DNA of 64,000 nt. Origin: Erwinia tracheiphila. GTDB taxonomy: Bacteria > Pseudomonadota > Gammaproteobacteria > Enterobacterales > Enterobacteriaceae. Location of the stretch: contig NZ_CP089932.1 of the NCBI RefSeq assembly GCF_021365465.1, positions 1,612,001-1,676,000 on the forward strand, written 5' to 3'. Positions 5,197-13,463 of this stretch are shown in pieces. The position numbers were made by a program, and so were the translations under genes. A model generated the notes under the pieces. The model was not told where the DNA came from and ran no database searches. It saw only the letters and a program-made list of their open reading frames with translations. Numbering within the stretch: the first letter of the stretch is position 1; each line of letters starts with the position of its first letter.

Positions 5197-6511
5197 GACC
5201 CTGTAAATAATTCTGTGTAACTGCCACCACGTCAAAGGTGAACGCTCAGGCGGTCACCGAACTCAATAATAAAGCGGCTCATCGCCAGCCGACAGTTCTG
5301 GACCGGCATACTCCATTTTTTCGATGCCGACTGGATTGCCAGGTAAATAACCTTTCGCACTGAGTCATCCGTCGGGAATACCTTGCGTTTCTTAATGGCG
5401 GCACGGATCACGCTGTTCAGCGACTCAATGGCATTCGTGGTGTAGATAGCTTTTCGGATGTCAGACGGATAGCCGAAGAACGTATTGAGGTTTTCCCCGT
5501 GCGCACGCCAGCTTTTGCTGATTTGTGGATATTTGTCATCCCATTCTTCGGCGAACGCATCCAGCGCCATCCGTGCGGCCGCTTCTGTTAGTGCCTGATA
5601 AACGGTTTTCAGCCCGCCTGTGACCGCTTTGTAGTCCTTCCACGCCACGTATTTCAGGCGGTTACGCACCATGTGGATGATGCACAGCTGGATGTGAGTC
5701 TGCGGATAGACGCTGTTTATCGCATCCGGGAAGCCCTTCAGGCCATCCACGCAGGCAATCAGGATGTCCTGAAGGCCGCGATTTTTAAGTTCCGTCAGCA
5801 CGTTCAGCCAGAACTTTGCACCTTCATTTTCAGCCAGCCACATCCCCGGAAGCTCTTTCCGGCCTTCGGTATTGATGCCCGGCGCCAGGAACACCGCTTT
5901 GTTAATCACGCTGCCATTCTGACGAACCTTAACAACAATACAGTCCAGATAAACAATGGGATAGAGCGCATCCAGCTGGCGATTCTGCCATTCGGCGACC
6001 TGCTCTTTAACGGCATCCGTGACTTTTGATATCAGGGGCGGTGACACATCAGCATCGTACATCTCTTTGAACGTATCGACGATTTCCCGCGTGGTCATGC
6101 CTTTGGCATACAAGGATAAAATCTGGCTGTCCATCTGCGTGATACGCGTCTGATTCTTCTTAATCAGCAGAGGTTCAAAGGTATTTTCCCGGTCGCGCGG
6201 CGTGTTTAGCCCGATTTCACCGTCGTCGCACAGCAGCGTTTTCGAAGAGTAGCCGTTGCGGGTATTGGTGCCGGTTTTAGGGGCATTTTTCTCATGCCCG
6301 AGGTGGTCAGTCAGTTCTGCATTGAGTGCCGTTTCAACGGTCAGCTTCGTGAGCATGCGGGAAAACTGATTAAGGCCGGCCTCAGTTTTGAGGCCTTTGG
6401 CCAGTTCAGCAGCAAGGGCCTTAAGTTTCTTCTCGTCCATAATTTGCCTGTCTCCATTGTTGGAGTGAACATATCAAAAACAGGCAATTACACAATTTTA
6501 ATTACAGTCTC
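5197..6511 (-). mobile_element. IS256-family insertion sequence (IS285-like), complete
   Basis: A 1315-bp element. The terminal inverted repeats begin GACCCTGTAAATAATTC at the left and, read on the other strand, GAGACTGTAATTAAAATT at the right, and both run on to GTGTAA(C/T)TGCC. Directly flanking copies of GCAGAATA (5189-5196 and 6512-6519) form an 8-bp target-site duplication, normal for IS256 elements. Length and the single long transposase gene agree with IS285-like members. Confidence 0.85.
5232..6440 (-). CDS. IS256-family (mutator-type) transposase
   Basis: A 402-residue DDE transposase of full length. The acidic catalytic residues lie in I-V-Y-L-D-C-I (first Asp), A-C-V-D-G-L-K-G-F (second Asp) and N-A-I-E-S-L-N (Glu). 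It also has the family's C-terminal block R-K-A-I-Y-T-T-N-A-I-E-S. No stop or frameshift interrupts it, and both element ends and the target duplication are intact, so this copy could still be active. A few substitutions near catalytic motifs relative to typical IS285 (for example S-P-P-L-I-S) cannot be judged here. Confidence 0.9.
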   Translation of the reverse strand: MDEKKLKALAAELAKGLKTEAGLNQFSRMLTKLTVETALNAELTDHLGHEKNAPKTGTNTRNGYSSKTLLCDDGEIGLNTPRDRENTFEPLLIKKNQTRITQMDSQILSLYAKGMTTREIVDTFKEMYDADVSPPLISKVTDAVKEQVAEWQNRQLDALYPIVYLDCIVVKVRQNGSVINKAVFLAPGINTEGRKELPGMWLAENEGAKFWLNVLTELKNRGLQDILIACVDGLKGFPDAINSVYPQTHIQLCIIHMVRNRLKYVAWKDYKAVTGGLKTVYQALTEAAARMALDAFAEEWDDKYPQISKSWRAHGENLNTFFGYPSDIRKAIYTTNAIESLNSVIRAAIKKRKVFPTDDSVRKVIYLAIQSASKKWSMPVQNCRLAMSRFIIEFGDRLSVHL

Positions 6512-6519
6512 GCAGAATA

Positions 6520-6804
6520 GGTAGCAGGGAGTTCGCAAATGAATTTACTGATGCTACAACCCCACAGCTTTTGCTGCTTTATGCTGTATCTGTAATTTAT
6601 AATTGTTATTTTTTCGATGAAGTATGCATAAACCACATTCTTATCATGGTCTGTCAGCAAATCAGCCATGTGCTTATATACTTTATGCCGCAATGATGCA
6701 TTCGCGCTTCCCGGCGCGACGTCCTGTCTGGATAAAGAATGTTCTTACGGACGTCAGGTTGAGAAACTTTCTGGCGCTTAAACGTTATCAACCGAACCGA
6801 TCCT
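6520..6804. other. Gap without recognisable gene
   Basis: About 285 bases of A/T-rich sequence right of the IS256-type element. Short frames on both strands lack start signals or motifs. Nothing is supportable. Confidence 0.3.
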
Positions 6805-7028
6805 GTGAATAACAAGACCTCTACTTTCTTATCATTAGCACTGTTCTTTTACAGTCAGCCATTAGTTTTGCCCAATCGGCTACGGCTCAGATTTCTGAAC
6901 TGGTTTCATCGTCTGTAAATGACTCACGTATTATCATCAAACCACGCAGTGGCCTGTCTGAGCTCAATACAACTGCTGCACTTAGCGTGCTCAACCTCCA
7001 CTGTTTCATGGACCGCAGAGCAAAGTGA
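6805..7028 (+). pseudogene. Secreted-protein N-terminal remnant, possibly subtilisin-like propeptide
   Basis: A GTG at 6805 begins a signal-peptide-like stretch (N-N-K-T-S-T-F-L-S-L-A-L-F). After one frameshift near 6845 it continues as I-S-F-A-Q-S-A-T-A-Q with a likely signal-peptidase site, then D-S-R-I-I-I-K-P-R-S-G-L-S-E-L-N. The R-I-I-I-K-P-R motif resembles the propeptide start of bacterial S8 peptidases. The frame stops at 7026-7028 with no catalytic domain. The assignment is tentative; the fragment shows that a secreted-protein gene was lost next to the peptide-export cluster. Confidence 0.35.
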
Positions 7029-7269
7029 CGGGTGATGAGCGGGTACTCTCCCGCGGGCAATAAAATGGGTGTATCACCTTGACATTATCAGGACTGAAGA
7101 CTGGTGCCCGGTTTTTTAACATATCAAAAGGATAATCAGGAGCTTATCCAGTCATTGACCTTAATATTTTGTCCGAAAAACTTCGTTCCTGGCATTAAAA
7201 ACCTTCATTATTAATGAAATGATAAAACGAGATTTACATTTTGTTGTATTTATTGTTAACAAAAAAATA

Positions 7270-7298
7270 TTGACGAATATAGGTGAATGCTGCATAAG
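7270..7298 (+). promoter_or_regulatory. Candidate promoter of the repeat-peptide gene
   Basis: TTGACG (7270-7275), a 17-base spacer and CATAAG (7293-7298) make a plausible sigma-70 promoter about 39 bases before the ATG at 7337. The surrounding DNA is very A/T rich. No Fur-type or other operator was recognised. Confidence 0.45.
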
Positions 7299-7336
7299 AG
7301 AGACTCTTGTTAAGCGCAGTTATACTGGAGAAAAAA

Positions 7337-7636
7337 ATGAAAACTTTATCTTCCGATGAAATTAAATTTGTTTCTGGTGCGGGCCTTCTTGTGAACAAAG
7401 TAGAAAGCTTTGATCCAAGTGGAGCTGGCACAATATTCGAGGGCCGTAGTGGTCGACCAGTTGGCCCTAGAAGTGACAATGGTAAAGCGAAAAGTATCAA
7501 TCTTGGCTCTGGCGATGCTATTCGCGCTGGCTCTGGCGATGCTATTCGCGCTGGCTCTGGCGATGCTATTCGCGCTGGCTCTGGCGATGCTATTCGCGCT
7601 GGCTCTGGCCGTGGTTCTCCATATAATAGGGGATAA
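7337..7636 (+). CDS. Double-glycine-leader peptide (microcin-like) with four eight-residue repeats
   Basis: A 99-residue precursor. Residues 1-15 (M-K-T-L-S-S-D-E-I-K-F-V-S-G-A) match the leader of class II microcins and colicin V, with conserved L/I/V positions and a G-A cleavage site, the signal for C39-peptidase ABC exporters. The core of about 84 residues has no cysteine. It starts G-L-L-V-N-K-V-E-S-F, then carries four exact copies of G-S-G-D-A-I-R-A (residues 57-88) and ends G-S-G-R-G-S-P-Y-N-R-G. A GGAG ribosome site lies 6-7 nt before the ATG; the in-frame ATG ten codons upstream would spoil the leader. The exporter pair follows within 400 bases. Secretion is strongly implied; toxic activity and target are unknown. 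The core resembles no microcin I know. Confidence 0.75.
   Translation: MKTLSSDEIKFVSGAGLLVNKVESFDPSGAGTIFEGRSGRPVGPRSDNGKAKSINLGSGDAIRAGSGDAIRAGSGDAIRAGSGDAIRAGSGRGSPYNRG
7505..7609 (+). repeat. Tandem array: four perfect 24-bp units plus a partial fifth
   Basis: The unit GGCTCTGGCGATGCTATTCG+CGCT repeats without any mismatch at 7505-7528, 7529-7552, 7553-7576 and 7577-7600, followed by a 9-base partial copy (7601-7609). The unit is a multiple of three, so copy-number changes keep the reading frame and only change the length of the encoded repeat domain. Identity at silent positions points to recent expansion by slippage or unequal recombination. Confidence 0.97.
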
Positions 7637-7770
7637 CTGGTAACGGTTCTTTCTTCTATTGAAGGCGGGCTGCTGCAATCGCTGGCGTAAGTACTGGAAC
7701 AATGGGTAAGGCTTTTGGAGAAGCTTTCGGTGGTTTATCAAAGGGATTGAGTCGGGATTTAATCCCCTGA
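7637..7770 (+). pseudogene. Second double-glycine-type peptide, degenerate
   Basis: Right after the first peptide gene, one frame reads V-L-S-S-I-E-G-G (7646-7669), like the end of a double-glycine leader but without a start codon. A second frame, one shift away, reads A-A-A-I-A-G-V-S-T-G-T-M-G-K-A-F-G-E-A-F and on to the TGA at 7768-7770. The latter has overlapping G-x-x-x-G motifs, common in membrane-inserting bacteriocins such as colicin V. The leader's N-terminus is missing and a frameshift separates leader from core, so this copy is presumably dead. Confidence 0.45.
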
Positions 7771-7794
7771 AAGTAGCTCAACAACCATCTGATT

Positions 7795-7823
7795 AATGGC
7801 CCCGCAAATGGTGTGGGGCCATT
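7795..7823 (+). terminator. Possible terminator after the peptide genes
   Basis: AATGGCCCC (7795-7803) and GGGGCCATT (7815-7823) form a 9-bp perfect stem with an 11-base loop. There is no T-run after it, so termination would be weak; it may separate high-level peptide expression from low-level exporter expression. Confidence 0.4.
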
Positions 7824-8002
7824 ACTAACCCCTTCTAAATAAAGTTTAATGTTACCAGAAAATCTCAATTCGCATTTCTTCCATTTTCATGCACCTTTCT
7901 GCTCTTGGGAAATATCACTTTCTGCCCGGCAAAAGCCATGCGTAATTTATTGTATACGGTGGCGGTGGATGCTGAGTCGCCGTTTTTCAGGAGAGTAAAA
8001 GA

Positions 8003-9283
8003 ATGCTTTTCAGACAGGAAGCGCTGGTGCACAGAAAACGACGCTGGGCAGGAAAAGCCGTGCTTATTCCTCCTCTTTCCCCATTACTGGTCAGCGGATT
8101 TACCATCCTGTTTTTCCTGTGCCTGTTGATTTTGTTGATCTCTGGCACCTATACAAGGCGGGTTGCCGTCAGGGGCGAACTGGTCTCAGTGCCGCGGGCG
8201 ATAACATTATTCTCAGAAGCCCGGGGAGTTATTGTTTCTCAGCGTGTCTGGCCCGGAGAACGGGTTAAAAAGGGGCAACCCTTAATGGATATTGACATCA
8301 GCAGAACCACATTGTCGGGTGGCGTCAGTATACGCCAGCGAGAAACCATTCGCGGCCAGATAAATACCGTGGAAAGTATTATCTCCAGACTCAGAGAAAA
8401 CAGGAAAATTACGCTGGAAACCCTGACCGCCCAAAAAGCGCGCTATGAAGAAGCGTTGCGCCGTTCTTCTGATATTCTCCACCAGTCGCAGCAGGGCATC
8501 GCAATTATGAAGGCCAATATGGAAAATTACCGTGATTATCACCGCCGTGGCCTGATTAACCAGGATCAATTGTCCAGTCAAACGGCGCTTTATTACCAGC
8601 AGCAGAATGACCTGCTGACGCTGGTCACACAAAATGAACAAAATGCTCTGCAGGTGATGTCTCTTGAGGGGAATATTCACACGCAGGCGACGGATTTTGA
8701 TAACCGAATCTACCAGCTAGAGATACAACGAAGCGATCTTAACCGGCAACTCACGGATGCTGAAGCTGCAGGCACGCTGGTAGTCACGTCACCAACGGAT
8801 GGACGAGTTGATTCGGTGAATACGGCAACAGGACAGGTTGCCCGTGCGAGCGATGCGCTGATGCAAATCATTCCCGGAAACGTATCACGCTATCAGCTTG
8901 TGCTGTGGGTACCTGACAATGCGGCACCCTTTCTGCGTGTTGGCGATAAAGTGAATATTCGCTACGATGCGTTTCCTTCGGAAAAGTTTGGTCTGTATCC
9001 GGGGCACATTGTTGCCGTGGCGGGGGTGCCGGCAACCTTTCAGGAGATGGCCACTTACCCCTCTGCCCCCGGCTCTGATGCTCTGGCTCCCCAGACCTGG
9101 TATCGCGTCACTGTTGAACCGGACTCCAGCCGCTTCGTCTGGCAGGGCCGCCAGTTGCCTGCGGAGAATGGGATGAAAGCGTCAGTCACGCTTTTTCTCG
9201 AAGAACGGCGGCTTTATCAGTGGATACTATCACCCTTTTACGATTTGGCAGCGAGCGCAGGAGGGCCATCCGGTGGAGAATAA
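8003..9283 (+). CDS. CvaA-like membrane fusion protein of the peptide exporter
   Basis: A 426-residue HlyD-family periplasmic adaptor. A basic N-terminus (F-R-Q-E-A-L-V-H-R-K) is followed by one membrane segment (about residues 28-48), a long coiled-coil hairpin (about 115-255) and a C-terminal beta-barrel ending in E-R-R-L-Y-Q-W-I-L-S-P-F-Y-D. These end motifs, plus N-M-E-N-Y-R and N-I-R-Y-D-A-F-P-S-E-K-F-G, are those of CvaA from the colicin V system. It would link the inner-membrane exporter to TolC. AGGAG lies 7-8 nt before the ATG at 8003. It overlaps the transporter gene by 11 bases. Confidence 0.9.
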   Translation: MLFRQEALVHRKRRWAGKAVLIPPLSPLLVSGFTILFFLCLLILLISGTYTRRVAVRGELVSVPRAITLFSEARGVIVSQRVWPGERVKKGQPLMDIDISRTTLSGGVSIRQRETIRGQINTVESIISRLRENRKITLETLTAQKARYEEALRRSSDILHQSQQGIAIMKANMENYRDYHRRGLINQDQLSSQTALYYQQQNDLLTLVTQNEQNALQVMSLEGNIHTQATDFDNRIYQLEIQRSDLNRQLTDAEAAGTLVVTSPTDGRVDSVNTATGQVARASDALMQIIPGNVSRYQLVLWVPDNAAPFLRVGDKVNIRYDAFPSEKFGLYPGHIVAVAGVPATFQEMATYPSAPGSDALAPQTWYRVTVEPDSSRFVWQGRQLPAENGMKASVTLFLEERRLYQWILSPFYDLAASAGGPSGGE

Positions 9284-11396
9284 AGACCCGATGTCGTGGA
9301 TAACAGACAGACTTGACCTTAGCTTCCGTCGTCGCTTTCCCCTTATCCTGCAGACTGAATCGGCTGAATGTGGGTTGGCCTGCCTTGCAATGATTATAAG
9401 ATGGTTCGGGCAGAATACTGATTTACTTTCCCTGCGGCATGCACACGGTATTTCTTCCCGTGGCGCTACCCTTGCTGAGTTGATGAACATAGCATCCCGG
9501 ATCGGAATGGCCACGCGTCCGTTGTCCCTGGATCTGGATGAGCTGCCAGAGATACGACTTCCCTGTATTCTGCACTGGGACTTCAGCCATTTTGTTGTGC
9601 TGGTAAAAGTGAATAAAGAAAGATGCGTCATTCACGATCCTGCTTTGGGGAGAAGGGTGATAGGGCGGCGTGAACTTTCTGAACATTTTACCGGGGTAGC
9701 ACTGGAAATATGGCCCGATGCCGATTTCACGCAGGTAGGACAGAGAACGCGTCTTCATACAGCAAGGCTGGCGCGCAACATTGTCGGCCTGCGTGCATCA
9801 CTAACAGTAATATTCAGTCTTTCACTGATGATTGAGTTCATTGGTCTGCTACTGCCCGTTGGCACGCAGATGGTTATGGATCATGCCGTGCCGGCGGATG
9901 ACCGCGGTCTGCTGATGATAATCTGTCTGGGGCTGTTATTGCTCACCCTGCTGCAGGCAGGACTGAACGTACTGCGAAACTGGACTTCGCTCATTATGAA
10001 CACCATGACGGATATTCAGTGGAAGGACGGCCTTTTTCGCCACCTCTTGCGCCTGCCGCTGATCTGGTTTGAAAAGCGTCAAACGGGAGATATCCAGTCC
10101 CGATTCAGTTCGCTGGATGCAATTCGCACCACGTTTACCCGCAATATCACGGGTGCACTGACTGACGGTATCATGTCAGTGGGTGCGCTGGTGCTACTGT
10201 GTCTTTACGGTGGTTGGCTTGCTGCCGTTGTGGTGGCGATCACTGCGCTTTATGTCCTGATCAGGCTGCTGGTTTATCCTGTTTATCGGCAAACGTCAGA
10301 AGAATTGCTGGTAAAAAATGGCAGGGCGGCTTCATCGTTTACCGAGACATTGTTTGGTATGGCGACGGTCAGAGCGCAGGGATTGTCGGAACGTCGCCGA
10401 CAGAACTGGCTTAGTCAGGTCTCTGATAGCGTAAACACAGGATTCAAACTGGCTCGCTTTGATATGTTTTTCGACGTGCTGAGTGCGTTTATCAGCGCCT
10501 GCGATAATGTGCTGATTCTGTGGCTGGGTATCTCACGCGTAATGGATAACCAGATGACCGTTGGCGCATTTGTCGCCTTCAGTGCTTTCCGTGGGTTGTT
10601 TTCGGACCGGATTTTGTCTCTGACCGGGCTGTTTGCCCAGCTGCGGATGTTGTCAATACACAATGAGAGAATAGCGGATATCGCCCTCAGTGAGGCGGAG
10701 CCTGAAAATTCCTTAAAGCCACCACTGGCAGGTGACGGTGCGCTCTCTCTCAGGGCGGAGGCGCTGTCATTTTGTTATGACGCACAAAGTCCTGCTGTTT
10801 TTAGCGGTCTGAATATGCATATTCGTGCAGGAGAAAGCGTGGCCATTACCGGGCCATCGGGATGCGGGAAAAGTACGCTGATGAAGGTGCTCTGCGGCCT
10901 TAGTGAGCCAACCGAAGGTCAGGTGATGGCTGACGGCAAGAATATTAACGCTATGGGGACAGGGTCTTACAGACAGGTGGTGGCCTGTATTTTGCAGGAA
11001 GATCGGCTTTTTTCTGGTTCTCTGAAGGATAATATTACTGGCTTTAGTGAACATGCAGACCAGATACTGATGGAGCGTTGTGCAAGAAGCGCACATATTC
11101 ATGAGGATATCCTCGCTCTGCCTATGGGTTATGAAACGTTAATTGGTGAACTGGGCGAAGGGTTATCCGGTGGACAGCGACAGAGAATTTTTATTGCCCG
11201 TGCTCTATACCGTCGACCCCGCATCCTGTTTATGGATGAAGCGACCAGCCATCTTGACGAGAAAAATGAGCAGTTAATAAATCAGGCCATTGCGGCACTG
11301 GATATCACCCGCGTGATCATTGCACATCGGTCATCTACCATCGAATCGGCTGATCGGGTGATTAGTTTAGGATCGGCTGTACAGACGAAAACATAA
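9273..11396 (+). CDS. CvaB-like C39-peptidase ABC exporter
   Basis: A 707-residue exporter that cuts the leader and pumps the peptide. Domains: C39 peptidase (about 20-150) with the catalytic Cys in S-A-E-C-G-L-A-C, His in W-D-F-S-H-F-V-V-L and Asp in H-D-P-A-L-G-R; six-helix membrane domain (about 170-440); nucleotide-binding domain with Walker A G-P-S-G-C-G-K-S-T, signature L-S-G-G-Q-R-Q-R, Walker B I-L-F-M-D-E-A-T and the H-loop in I-A-H-R. All key residues are present. The GTG start at 9273 is supported by AGGAGG 8 nt upstream; ATG 9291 is the alternative. Overlap with the adaptor gene implies coupled translation. Its likely cargo is the peptide encoded at 7337. Confidence 0.92.
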   Translation: MENKDPMSWITDRLDLSFRRRFPLILQTESAECGLACLAMIIRWFGQNTDLLSLRHAHGISSRGATLAELMNIASRIGMATRPLSLDLDELPEIRLPCILHWDFSHFVVLVKVNKERCVIHDPALGRRVIGRRELSEHFTGVALEIWPDADFTQVGQRTRLHTARLARNIVGLRASLTVIFSLSLMIEFIGLLLPVGTQMVMDHAVPADDRGLLMIICLGLLLLTLLQAGLNVLRNWTSLIMNTMTDIQWKDGLFRHLLRLPLIWFEKRQTGDIQSRFSSLDAIRTTFTRNITGALTDGIMSVGALVLLCLYGGWLAAVVVAITALYVLIRLLVYPVYRQTSEELLVKNGRAASSFTETLFGMATVRAQGLSERRRQNWLSQVSDSVNTGFKLARFDMFFDVLSAFISACDNVLILWLGISRVMDNQMTVGAFVAFSAFRGLFSDRILSLTGLFAQLRMLSIHNERIADIALSEAEPENSLKPPLAGDGALSLRAEALSFCYDAQSPAVFSGLNMHIRAGESVAITGPSGCGKSTLMKVLCGLSEPTEGQVMADGKNINAMGTGSYRQVVACILQEDRLFSGSLKDNITGFSEHADQILMERCARSAHIHEDILALPMGYETLIGELGEGLSGGQRQRIFIARALYRRPRILFMDEATSHLDEKNEQLINQAIAALDITRVIIAHRSSTIESADRVISLGSAVQTKT

Positions 11397-12057
11397 ATTG
11401 CTTACAGAGAGAGTCGTGAAGAAAAAACAGTGAATTGATAATGGCAATCTTTCTGCCGTGATCGGATAGGGCTAATGCTTATCAGATGACCGATAACATC
11501 CTCTTACAGGAAGTTAAAATGGTCCAGGTCACCTTCTGTGGCCTGTTTACCATAAATGTTCGGGGCGTTTATGTCAGTCATGGATGAGATTAATCAGCGG
11601 TACGTTAACGCTGAACATGTCTGTATCAACTTTAGCATTGATGGTGGAGGGATGATCCCCGGTTTTGTTGATGGACCATGCCATTTTCATATCCCGATTG
11701 CCTGTGGCCATTGTTAATCTCTCAGTGGTGGACTCTGCTGCAACGATTCCCTATTGTGAAGCCTGTTTAAGGTAATCTGATAGAATTGTTCAAATTCAGA
11801 TTTGTTGTTCACATTCTGACAAACGCGTTGTCAGAGTCTGGAACGGTTGGTTAGTACGCCAGCAAAAACCGACTGGTGGAATATTGTCAACGGTATCGCG
11901 TGTAAGGCGGGACAACGTTGGCAAATATATCTGAATGATATGACGATTTTTATATCAGGCAGGCCCTGTAAATGATAAAAAATCGTCAGTTTGTTCTGTG
12001 GTTAACATAAGGCGTGAGCTGCTGATGGTATCTGTCTTTTTACTTGCCTTTGCAGCT
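11397..12057. other. Gap after the exporter; only short unproven frames
   Basis: No gene can be supported. A 48-codon plus-strand frame at 11571-11717 (ending P-I-A-C-G-H-C) and an overlapping minus-strand frame at 11716-11576 both lack a family match. One might have been expected to be an immunity gene, but neither shows a convincing membrane protein. The rest is A/T-rich DNA leading to the arn promoter region. Confidence 0.35.
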
Positions 12058-12074
12058 CTTAATTTTCAATTAAG
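12058..12074. promoter_or_regulatory. PmrA-box-like hexamer pair upstream of arnB
   Basis: CTTAAT, five bases, ATTAAG: two PmrA-type half-sites with the right spacing, but the second is inverted instead of direct. It lies 238 bases before arnB. In enteric bacteria arn operons are activated by PmrA, so it is a candidate operator, not a proven one. Confidence 0.3.
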
Positions 12075-12311
12075 AAATATGCTCTATCGTTAGCGAAACG
12101 TTGAACTTGAGCGGTTAACATCATGCCACAATGCCCCATATCTGTATAAGGACAAAAGGTTTGTTAAAAAGTATCAGCGAAACTTTCGTTTTCTATTGGC
12201 ACGGTTAGAAATAACTTTGATACCATTTCAAATGGTTATCAATATAACGGACGATGTAAATCGCACATTCTGTTAAAGTAAACTCAGGTGACTATTAAAG
12301 GAAGTTTGATT

Positions 12312-13463
12312 ATGTCCGAATTTCTCCCCTTCTCGCGTCCGGCGATGGGTGAAGATGAATTGGCTGCCGTTAGTGACGTGCTCCGTTCTGGCTGGATTAC
12401 CACCGGCCCCCAAAATCAGCAATTGGAAAAAGCGTTCTGTGAACTGACCGGCAATCAGCATGCCATTGCGGTCAGTTCTGCCACGGCGGGGATGCATGTC
12501 ACACTGATGGCTCTGGGTATTGGTGCAGGTGATGAGGTGATTTCTCCCTCGCTGACCTGGGTTTCCACTCTGAACATGATTGCTCTGCTGGGCGCTGAAC
12601 CGGTCATGGTGGACGTTGACCGTGATACGTTGATGGTTACCCCCGCGCTGATTGAAGCGGCGATTACGCCACGAACGAAAGCGATTATCCCTGTACATTA
12701 TGCTGGCGCACCGGCAGACATTGACGCCATTCACGCTATCGGTAAACGTCACGGTATTCCCGTTATTGACGATGCTGCGCATTCTACCGGCACCTTTTAT
12801 AAAAGGCGCCATGTGGGCGCGATCGGTACGGCAATATTTTCCTTCCACGCCATCAAAAATATGACGTGTGCCGAAGGCGGTCTGGTGGTCACGGATGATG
12901 AATCCCTGGCAAACCGTATTCGAAGCCTGAAGTTTCACGGGTTAGGTGTGGATGCTTTCGATCGCCAGACCCATGGTCGGTCACCACAGGCTGAAGTTAT
13001 CACTCCTGGTTATAAGTACAATCTGGCGGATATTAATGCTGCCATCGCGCTGGTACAGCTGGAAAAACTGCCCCGGCTTAATGCACGCCGTGAAGAAATT
13101 GCTGTGCGCTATTTGCGTGAGCTGGCCGATACGCCATTCCTGCCACTATCCCAGCCGGAATACTCACACCAGCATGCCTGGCACCTGTTTATCCTGCGCG
13201 TCGATGAGGCGCGCTGTGGACTGACGCGTGATGAACTGATGCAGGCACTGAAAGAACGCAATATCGGTACCGGCCTGCATTTCCGTGCGGCGCACACCCA
13301 GAAATATTATCGTGAGCGTTTTCCAGAGCTTTCGCTCCCCGCCACCGAGTGGAATTCGCCGCGTATCTGTTCGATCCCATTATTCCCTACAATGACCGAT
13401 GACGATGTTAGCCGCGTAATTACCGCGCTGCGTGAGATCGCTGAGAAATTTCATGACCGCTGA
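12312..13463 (+). CDS. arnB: UDP-4-amino-4-deoxy-L-arabinose aminotransferase
   Basis: A 383-residue PLP-dependent aminotransferase that converts UDP-4-keto-pentose to UDP-L-Ara4N in the cytoplasm. The PLP lysine sits in [15 protein letters not shown]; other family blocks are [16 protein letters not shown] and P-G-Y-K-Y-N-L. The start at 12312 ([10 protein letters not shown]) follows AAAGGAAG and matches E. coli ArnB; the upstream in-frame GTG at 12288 is less likely. It is the first gene of the seven-gene operon, with an 11-base overlap into arnC. Confidence 0.97.

What the first reader, a model, noticed from the sequence alone, without database searches (positions are those of the whole stretch)
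7337..11396. Colicin-V-type export cluster with a peptide built on four identical G-S-G-D-A-I-R-A repeats
Seen: a 99-residue precursor with a G-A leader, a cysteine-free core of about 84 residues with four exact repeats, then intact CvaA- and CvaB-like genes. Known: C39-peptidase exporters cut such leaders and export class II microcins through TolC. Inference: this is a functional secreted peptide system whose core is unlike the microcins I know (no Gly-rich membrane helix, no siderophore-type Ser-rich tail). The repeats might act in binding, metal contact or self-assembly instead of, or besides, killing.
Basis: partly seen in the sequence, partly recalled or inferred. Interest (0 to 1): 0.88.

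Follow-up and report, generated by a model that had tools for sequence, protein, structure and literature searches.

The report
Repeat-variable export-tagged peptide in Erwinia
A bacterium that is probably the cucurbit wilt pathogen Erwinia tracheiphila carries a small export-tagged peptide beside the pump that should cut and release it; its four identical repeats look like a copy-number variant between strains, and similar export-tagged peptides are scattered through many genomes of its genus.

Summary
At 7337-7636 lies a 99-codon precursor (GA leader, cysteine-free 84-residue core, four exact GSGDAIRA copies), followed by intact CvaA (8003-9283) and CvaB (9273-11396) with C39 catalytic motifs. 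The genome is probably Erwinia tracheiphila.

The leader is conserved and exporter-type. The repeats are not a conserved design: the four DNA copies are identical, and another E. tracheiphila protein has one. A second locus has the same upstream region and leader but an unrelated polar core. E. mallotivora keeps this exporter with a ClpP-like gene, a small hydrophobic ORF and a microcin-like leader ORF; in the window the ClpP-like gene is broken, the other two were not found, and no immunity-like ORF is adjacent.

A leader profile matched 100 places in 26 of 37 genomes of the genus (9 are its own rows), 99 in genomes with a C39 domain, 75 over 10 kb from one. So the peptide is probably one cargo of a dispersed set sharing few exporters. 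Polar cores are a minority there (rank 10 of 95), not unique. Function (competition, host contact or relic) is open; class II microcin membership is not met.

The parts
7204..7218 (.). 15-bp palindrome TTCATTA-T-TAATGAA upstream of the precursor, identical at the second locus; possible operator
   Evidence: function inferred only. Best match to a Fur box (consensus recalled) is no better than shuffles (467 of 500 reach it)
7337..7636 (+). 99-codon peptide precursor
   Evidence: the only two protein relatives at E <= 1 are the same gene called short and an E. tracheiphila protein
7337..7381 (+). leader, 15 codons ending Gly-Ala (predicted C39 cleavage after Ala15)
   Evidence: cleavage itself not shown
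7505..7600 (+). four identical 24-bp repeats, GSGDAIRA
   Evidence: one copy in strain protein P0003
7637..7788 (+). about 151 bp present here and absent at the second locus; holds a Gly/Ala-rich remnant frame at 7663-7770 (P0004), perhaps from another leader peptide
   Evidence: origin inferred
7794..7824 (+). 13-bp stem hairpin between precursor and exporter genes; near the left edge of the stretch that is 99% identical to the second locus
   Evidence: -22.8 kcal/mol, z -3.63; terminator scan found none
8003..9283 (+). CvaA-like membrane fusion protein, 426 aa
   Evidence: dN/dS 0.06 against E. mallotivora
9273..11396 (+). CvaB-like C39 peptidase ABC exporter, 707 aa (GTG start), Cys33/His106/Asp122
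   Evidence: dN/dS 0.045
11420..11772 (+). broken remnant of the ClpP-like gene that follows cvaB in E. mallotivora (three pieces, one with a stop)
5232..6440 (-). Mutator-family transposase upstream of the cluster
   Evidence: PF00872 2.3e-111

Best explanation
A small secreted peptide of the double-glycine kind. It is made with a 15-residue leader, cut after Gly14-Ala15 by the C39 domain of the adjacent CvaB and released through CvaB, CvaA and a TolC-type channel as an 84-residue (here), polar, basic, probably disordered peptide. It is one of two peptides of this genome that share upstream region and leader but have unrelated cores, and one of a genus-wide dispersed set of such cargos that share a few exporters. 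The four repeats are a strain-level copy-number expansion, not a conserved working part. Its most likely job is competition with related bacteria, as for other cargos of this exporter family. Shown: gene, leader conservation, intact exporter, repeat number differing between two strain proteins, dispersed leader ORFs. Inferred: cleavage, export, which exporter is used, competition.
For: Leader: 44 of 48 bases identical between the two loci, 3 of 4 codon changes synonymous, while the core stretch matches at 65 of 123 aligned bases with 129 gap columns. Exporter intact with catalytic motifs, dN/dS 0.06 and 0.045. Genus: 100 leader matches in 26 of 37 genomes, 99 of them in the 32 genomes with a C39 domain; five genomes with a single C39 match have 4 to 8 leader matches each (G007, G013, G014, G026, G033). 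Strain variation: one repeat against four; 4 substitutions of 77 aligned residues against 3 of 426 in CvaA (Fisher p 0.012). OEP-family proteins are present. A weak Pfam MccV match over residues 1-44 (E 0.67, 11 bits, cut-off 27) points the same way but is below threshold.
Against: No immunity-like ORF adjacent. Core without membrane-type segment or Cys. The cluster is partly decayed in a species known for gene decay (PMC6168856, passages). No homologue found outside E. tracheiphila, so no functional anchor. The genome has a second C39 exporter that could serve some cargos. Low dN/dS averages over the whole split from E. mallotivora with saturated dS and cannot show present-day use. The leader profile was built largely from exporter-near loci: 9 of its 20 rows come from searched genomes; without those 9 matches the link to C39 is weaker (23 of 32 against 1 of 5, p 0.042) and that to CvaA is not significant (17 of 22 against 7 of 15, p 0.083).
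Confidence: 0.5

Rival explanations
1. Relic. The cluster was a class IIa-type microcin cluster as in E. mallotivora; here immunity, microcin and ClpP-like genes decayed or left, and the surviving leader ORF drifts without function, its repeats growing by slippage.
For: Broken ClpP-like gene; no small hydrophobic ORF or microcin-like ORF seen after it, while E. mallotivora has a 65-aa hydrophobic ORF and a NANSGYEGG-class leader ORF there; Gly/Ala-rich remnant just after the gene; other leader genes of the same genome are short (21 and 49 aa); fast change between strains.
Against: The ORF is open in both strain versions, the one-repeat protein being listed on 28 contigs. Leader codon changes are mostly synonymous. 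cvaA and cvaB are open over 3.4 kb in a decaying genome. Three other leader peptides remain of ordinary length.
Confidence: 0.3
2. Host- or surface-directed peptide: the polar core acts on the plant, the insect vector or extracellular polymers rather than on bacterial membranes, as RaxX of Xanthomonas does in rice.
For: Polar, Cys-free core; seen only in this plant pathogen. RaxX precedent: PMC6637879 (start of abstract in the listing; its C39-type export is recalled). Morton 2026 (PMC13174018, Discussion read) says some microcins may affect plant or animal hosts.
Against: The only Sulfotransfer_3 match in the genome is about 1.95 Mb away, beside a dioxygenase-like ORF (that label is recalled). 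The only Tyr of the core is His in the other strain. Similarity to plant peptides was not tested.
Confidence: 0.12
3. Ordinary antibacterial class II microcin with an unusual core and an immunity gene elsewhere in the genome.
For: Leader, C39 exporter and fusion protein as in class II microcins (PMC9746304, introduction read). Lack of an adjacent immunity ORF is usual for dispersed Erwinia leader ORFs: 7 of 64 have a same-strand hydrophobic ORF against 8 of 64 on the opposite strand.
Against: Immunity ORF not found nearby; no Cys pair (class IIa) and no Gly/Ser siderophore-type tail (class IIb).
Confidence: 0.08

Closest known systems
Class II microcins (MccV and relatives), leader-C39-TolC export
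   Same: 15-residue leader ending GA, CvaA- and CvaB-like genes next to it, C39 catalytic residues
   Different: Polar core without membrane-type segment or Cys; four repeats; no immunity ORF adjacent; no activity shown
E. mallotivora exporter cluster (NZ_JFHN01000011.1; L088, L122)
   Same: CvaA 86% and CvaB 85% identical; DNA alignable from just before cvaA into the ClpP-like gene
   Different: There an intact ClpP-like gene, a 65-aa hydrophobic ORF and a NANSGYEGG-class leader ORF follow; no precursor of this kind was found
Polar C39 peptides of two Erwinia genomes (L057, L058) and a Yersinia bercovieri plasmid (L107)
   Same: Polar Gly/Ser/Asn-rich cores with basic C-terminus behind a class II leader, near CvaA/CvaB
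   Different: Those have 2-3 Cys and GG leaders, and large neighbouring ORFs (252-286 aa of unknown family, or a double glycosyltransferase)
RaxX of Xanthomonas
   Same: Small secreted peptide of a plant pathogen
   Different: No sulfotransferase beside it, Tyr not conserved between strains

Membership tests
Class II microcin | N-terminal leader of 15-18 residues ending GG or GA (PMC10233263, passages) | tested here: met
   MKTLSSDEIKFVSGA, aligned with 18 leaders of other loci
Class II microcin | C39 exporter with Cys/His/Asp triad, and fusion protein | tested here: met
   Cys33, His106, Asp122; CvaA full length
Class II microcin | TolC-type outer membrane partner in the genome | tested here: met
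   at family level only: seven OEP matches in four places; TolC itself not identified
Class II microcin | Cognate immunity protein near the gene | tested here: not met
   none within 300 bp; ORF list read by eye; both are heuristics
Class II microcin | Class IIa Cys pair or class IIb Gly/Ser tail with modification genes | tested here: not met
   0 Cys; tail GSGRGSPYNRG. Neighbouring ORFs were read by eye; six window proteins were scanned with Pfam
Class II microcin | Antibacterial activity | not testable with these tools
   needs bench assay
RaxX-type peptide | Tyrosine sulfotransferase gene in the cluster (recalled) | tested here: not met
   the only Sulfotransfer_3 match is about 1.95 Mb away
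RaxX-type peptide | Conserved sulfated tyrosine | tested here: not met
   Tyr96 is His in P0003
RTX repeat protein | Nonapeptide GGxGxDxux repeats and uncleaved C-terminal signal (recalled) | tested here: not met
   8-residue unit and N-terminal leader; no RTX family in the Pfam scan at E <= 1
Ntox47 toxin domain | Pfam gathering score 25 | tested here: not met
   14.2 bits, E 0.051

The most novel reading that the evidence does not exclude
Erwinia species keep a dispersed secreted peptidome: many single-gene loci, some syntenic between species and mostly without a recognisable immunity gene beside them, feed a few shared C39 exporters. E. tracheiphila has added two polar members whose cores were replaced behind one upstream region and leader, one of which varies by repeat number between strains; these act on something other than bacterial membranes, perhaps the plant or vector.
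Probability: 0.2. Interest if true: 0.72.

Novelty: new variant of a known kind. Interest (0 to 1): 0.42.

Why it matters
Searches for microcins look for exporter, immunity and peptide in one genome and favour those close together. If many leader peptides in a genus sit alone and share an exporter, such searches miss part of the secreted peptide set, and the rule 'one microcin, one immunity gene' needs testing. A polar, repeat-variable cargo in a crop wilt pathogen would also be a clean test of what these exporters carry besides membrane-active microcins.

Tried and rejected
Rejected: Ntox47 (E 0.051, below cut-off). The cytochrome match in PDB by sequence (E 0.63). Fur control. Common ancestry of the two cores: p 0.066, and 0.23 without the last four residues. 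RTX (recalled motif). A plasmid copy (no match) and a copy elsewhere in GTDB r220 (none of 60 candidate stretches; both searches may leave out near-identical genomes). I first thought that E. mallotivora had no cargo at its exporter: wrong, searches show a leader ORF running to the contig end.

Led nowhere: AF2 of the precursor on a 3-row alignment (mean pLDDT 62.9; repeats about 84-87, no secondary structure assigned because DSSP gave nothing); relatives of the remnant P0004 (best other match E 0.04 in 149 genomes; phmmer 0.007 with high bias in a panel of 95); sigma-70 and terminator scans (0 found); PHROGs (0 families). The structure search never ran.

A check of the draft report changed it: the leader-profile E-values of the two peptides are not evidence, because both are rows of the profile; the profile's bias is now counted; the gene order in Pantoea is not the same as in E. 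mallotivora; call numbers for the E. mallotivora leader ORF were mended.
Full report
What is there. Near-identical relatives of its proteins are from Erwinia tracheiphila: P0003, 'hypothetical protein LU604_16920 [Erwinia tracheiphila]', and CvaA P0006, 423 of 426 residues identical, whose longest contig has the same length as that of P0003, 4891733 bases. I therefore read the genome as E. tracheiphila; this is inference.

The peptide. MKTLSSDEIKFVSGA is a class II type leader; the core is 84 residues, no Cys, net charge +4, 22.6% Gly, best 19-residue hydropathy 0.44. Pfam gives only sub-threshold matches: Ntox47 (E 0.051) and MccV over residues 1-44 (E 0.67, 11 bits, cut-off 27); NCBIfam and PHROGs give none. 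In a collection of about 5.8 billion proteins two of 7917 word-sharing candidates reach E <= 1: P0002 (the same gene called from a later start, 2 contigs) and P0003 (77 aa, listed on 28 contigs). P0003 has one repeat, GSGDVIRA, where the window has four GSGDAIRA, and four substitutions in 77 aligned residues. CvaA differs at 3 of 426 residues between the window and P0006; Fisher p 0.012, one pair of strains only. The four DNA copies are identical. The simplest reading is a 24-bp slippage repeat that varies between strains. Only protein, not DNA, of the other strain was available.

A second locus. At 3007861 of the same contig lies a 56-codon ORF (L002:1501-1671) with MRTLSSDEIKFVSGA, then a different polar core ending YYRG, against YNRG in the window. 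Upstream DNA matches at 159 of 177 bases, the first 16 codons at 44 of 48 bases (three of four codon changes silent), the core at 65 of 123 aligned bases with 129 gap columns, and from the hairpin to the cvaA start 211 of 212. There cvaA matches only over residues 1-83. The two cores are not demonstrably related. A variant of the 56-aa peptide with K2 exists on another contig, P0005. So upstream region, leader and stop are kept and the core is exchanged or very fast evolving.

The exporter. Motifs CGLACLAM (33), SHFVVL (105), HDPALG (121), GPSGCGKST (527), LSGGQRQR (631) and ILFMDEATS (651) are present. Against E. mallotivora CvaA has dN/dS 0.062 and CvaB 0.045; dS is saturated (1.4 and 2.1), so this shows long purifying selection, not use today. 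A second C39 exporter with its own outer membrane protein lies at about 474 kb. OEP-family matches are in four places.

The cluster in its relatives. Genome G010 is read as E. mallotivora because its contig C11 and the record NZ_JFHN01000011.1 have the same length, 25444 bases, and the same CvaA identity. There cvaB is followed by a ClpP-like gene (PF00574, 3.6e-13), a 65-aa hydrophobic ORF (no Pfam match) and a leader ORF MTIRLLTEKEITIVSGGNANSGYEGGC... that runs off the contig end. On two Pantoea agglomerans plasmids CvaA-CvaB-ClpP-like is followed by a microcin-like ORF and then a 65-aa ORF, so the last two stand in the other order. In the window a broken ClpP-like remnant covers 11420-11772 in three pieces, one with a stop, and the 65-aa ORF has no match better than E 1.2 in 6001-13000. 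The remnant at 7663-7770 is Gly/Ala-rich and has no clear relative. This cluster seems to have lost its ordinary microcin part.

A dispersed repertoire. A profile of 20 leaders (A3) searched in the window's genome and G010 gave 20 rows at E <= 10; at E <= 0.01 there are 6 and 9. The window's genome has, besides the two polar peptides (both are rows of the profile), three of ordinary length (88, 97 and 92 aa: L113, L114, L116) and one of 21 aa (L119); a 49-aa ORF (L123) is weaker, E 2.7. L113/L112 and L114/L120 share flanking DNA and 57 of 88 and 59 of 93 residues; L119/L111 share flanks; L116/L118 share an upstream flank but only 37 of 92 residues; L123/L122 share nothing. In 37 genomes of the genus, own included, the profile gives 100 matches at E <= 0.01 in 26 genomes. 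Nine matches are rows of the profile itself; 91 in 24 genomes are left without them. C39 domains are in 32 of 37 genomes, 0 to 4 matches each, some of them in frames too short for an exporter. 25 of 32 genomes with a C39 domain have leader matches and 1 of 5 without (Fisher p 0.021); 99 of 100 matches are in the former; without the nine it is 23 of 32 against 1 of 5, p 0.042. For CvaA relatives (E <= 1e-40) the split is 19 of 22 against 7 of 15, p 0.025, and 17 of 22 against 7 of 15, p 0.083, without the nine. Twelve genomes have a single C39 match; of these G013 has 8 leader matches, G014 5, and G007, G026 and G033 4 each. 25 of 100 matches lie within 10 kb of a C39 domain and 75 do not, on draft contigs in many cases. 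Genomes of one genus are related, so these p-values are not independent tests.

Immunity. A scan for same-strand ORFs of 40-250 aa with a hydrophobic segment within 300 bp found them at 7 of 64 dispersed leader ORFs, against 8 of 64 on the opposite strand; at 18 exporter-near ones 5 against 2 (leader ORFs with under 450 bp of flank, or missed by the regular expression, were dropped, and the two groups were set by hand). Of the 7, five look like housekeeping or exporter genes (labels recalled). The window's precursor has none. So lack of an adjacent immunity gene is usual here and says little against an antibacterial role. Cole 2022 (PMC9746304, passages) also allows that not all microcins may have specific immunity proteins.

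How unusual is the core. In a hand-built panel of 29 cores the three E. tracheiphila entries (P0001, P0003, second locus) stand with three polar, Cys-containing ones (L057, L058, L107) below the other 23. In a regex-collected panel of 95 distinct precursors, not checked one by one, P0001 ranks 10th by weakest hydrophobic segment and 9th by GRAVY, the second-locus peptide 6th and 2nd; P0001 is the only one with three or more exact tandem copies of a unit of 5-12 residues. Polar cores are a minority, not unique.

Literature. Morton 2026 (PMC13174018; [quoted passage not shown] 'tracheiphila' and 'mallotivora' occur 0 times in its main text; its supplements were not read. Full-text searches for E. 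tracheiphila with microcin or bacteriocin (20 of 1070 rows listed), for dispersed or orphan double-glycine leaders (10 of 12), for microcins with tandem repeats (4 of 4) and for C39 exporters with Erwinia (8 of 19) listed no paper whose title or abstract start is about this peptide or a dispersed set. PMC6168856 (passages) describes strong gene decay and three lineages in E. tracheiphila. PMC10233263 was read in passages, PMC9746304 in abstract, introduction and passages.

Verdict. Observation confirmed; a new, species-restricted, repeat-variable cargo of a known export system, with a wider and less expected context (dispersed cargos). Function is undecided between competition peptide, relic and host-directed peptide.

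Noticed in passing
L107 (Yersinia bercovieri plasmid NZ_CP124241.1) 1920-6281: A polar Ser/Gly-rich leader peptide, an 85-aa ORF and an 808-aa protein with two glycosyltransferase domains (PF12919 3.7e-24, PF00535 6.5e-18) stand before CvaA/CvaB; may be a glycosylated exported peptide.
   Followed up: partly
window 7479-7643: A 54-codon ORF in another frame across the repeats reads MVKRKVS followed by a long LALAMLFA-type hydrophobic stretch (part of the 7410-7643 ORF). No strong ribosome site seen; probably a side effect of codon usage.
   Followed up: no
L104 5994-10791 (G000:C1, about 473-478 kb): Second C39 exporter of the genome with fusion protein and its own OEP-type protein; no leader ORF was seen beside it.
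   Followed up: partly
L089, L090, L091, L095 upstream of CvaA: About 500-aa ORF plus a 144-163-aa ORF resembling HlyC-type acyltransferases (resemblance recalled, not scanned), and in L090 and L095 ORFs ending CGCG..CGHDL.
   Followed up: no
L092 7551-9268 (Kosakonia sacchari): Four leader-type peptides in a row after CvaB, the last cut by the locus end; the first has a weak PSMbeta match (E 7.7e-4, below cut-off).
   Followed up: no
L057, L058, L061: In L057 and L058 polar leader peptides with two Cys follow a 286- or 252-aa ORF; the L058 one has no Pfam match, while the 234-aa ORF of L061, next to a truncated leader ORF, has a weak ClpP match (E 0.0035, below cut-off).
   Followed up: partly
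L053 8915-9145: 76-aa ORF upstream of the second peptide locus, no Pfam match.
   Followed up: partly
window 12288-13463: Aminotransferase over the cut-off of the UDP-4-amino-4-deoxy-L-arabinose model PRK11658 (735.3 bits), downstream of the cluster.
   Followed up: no
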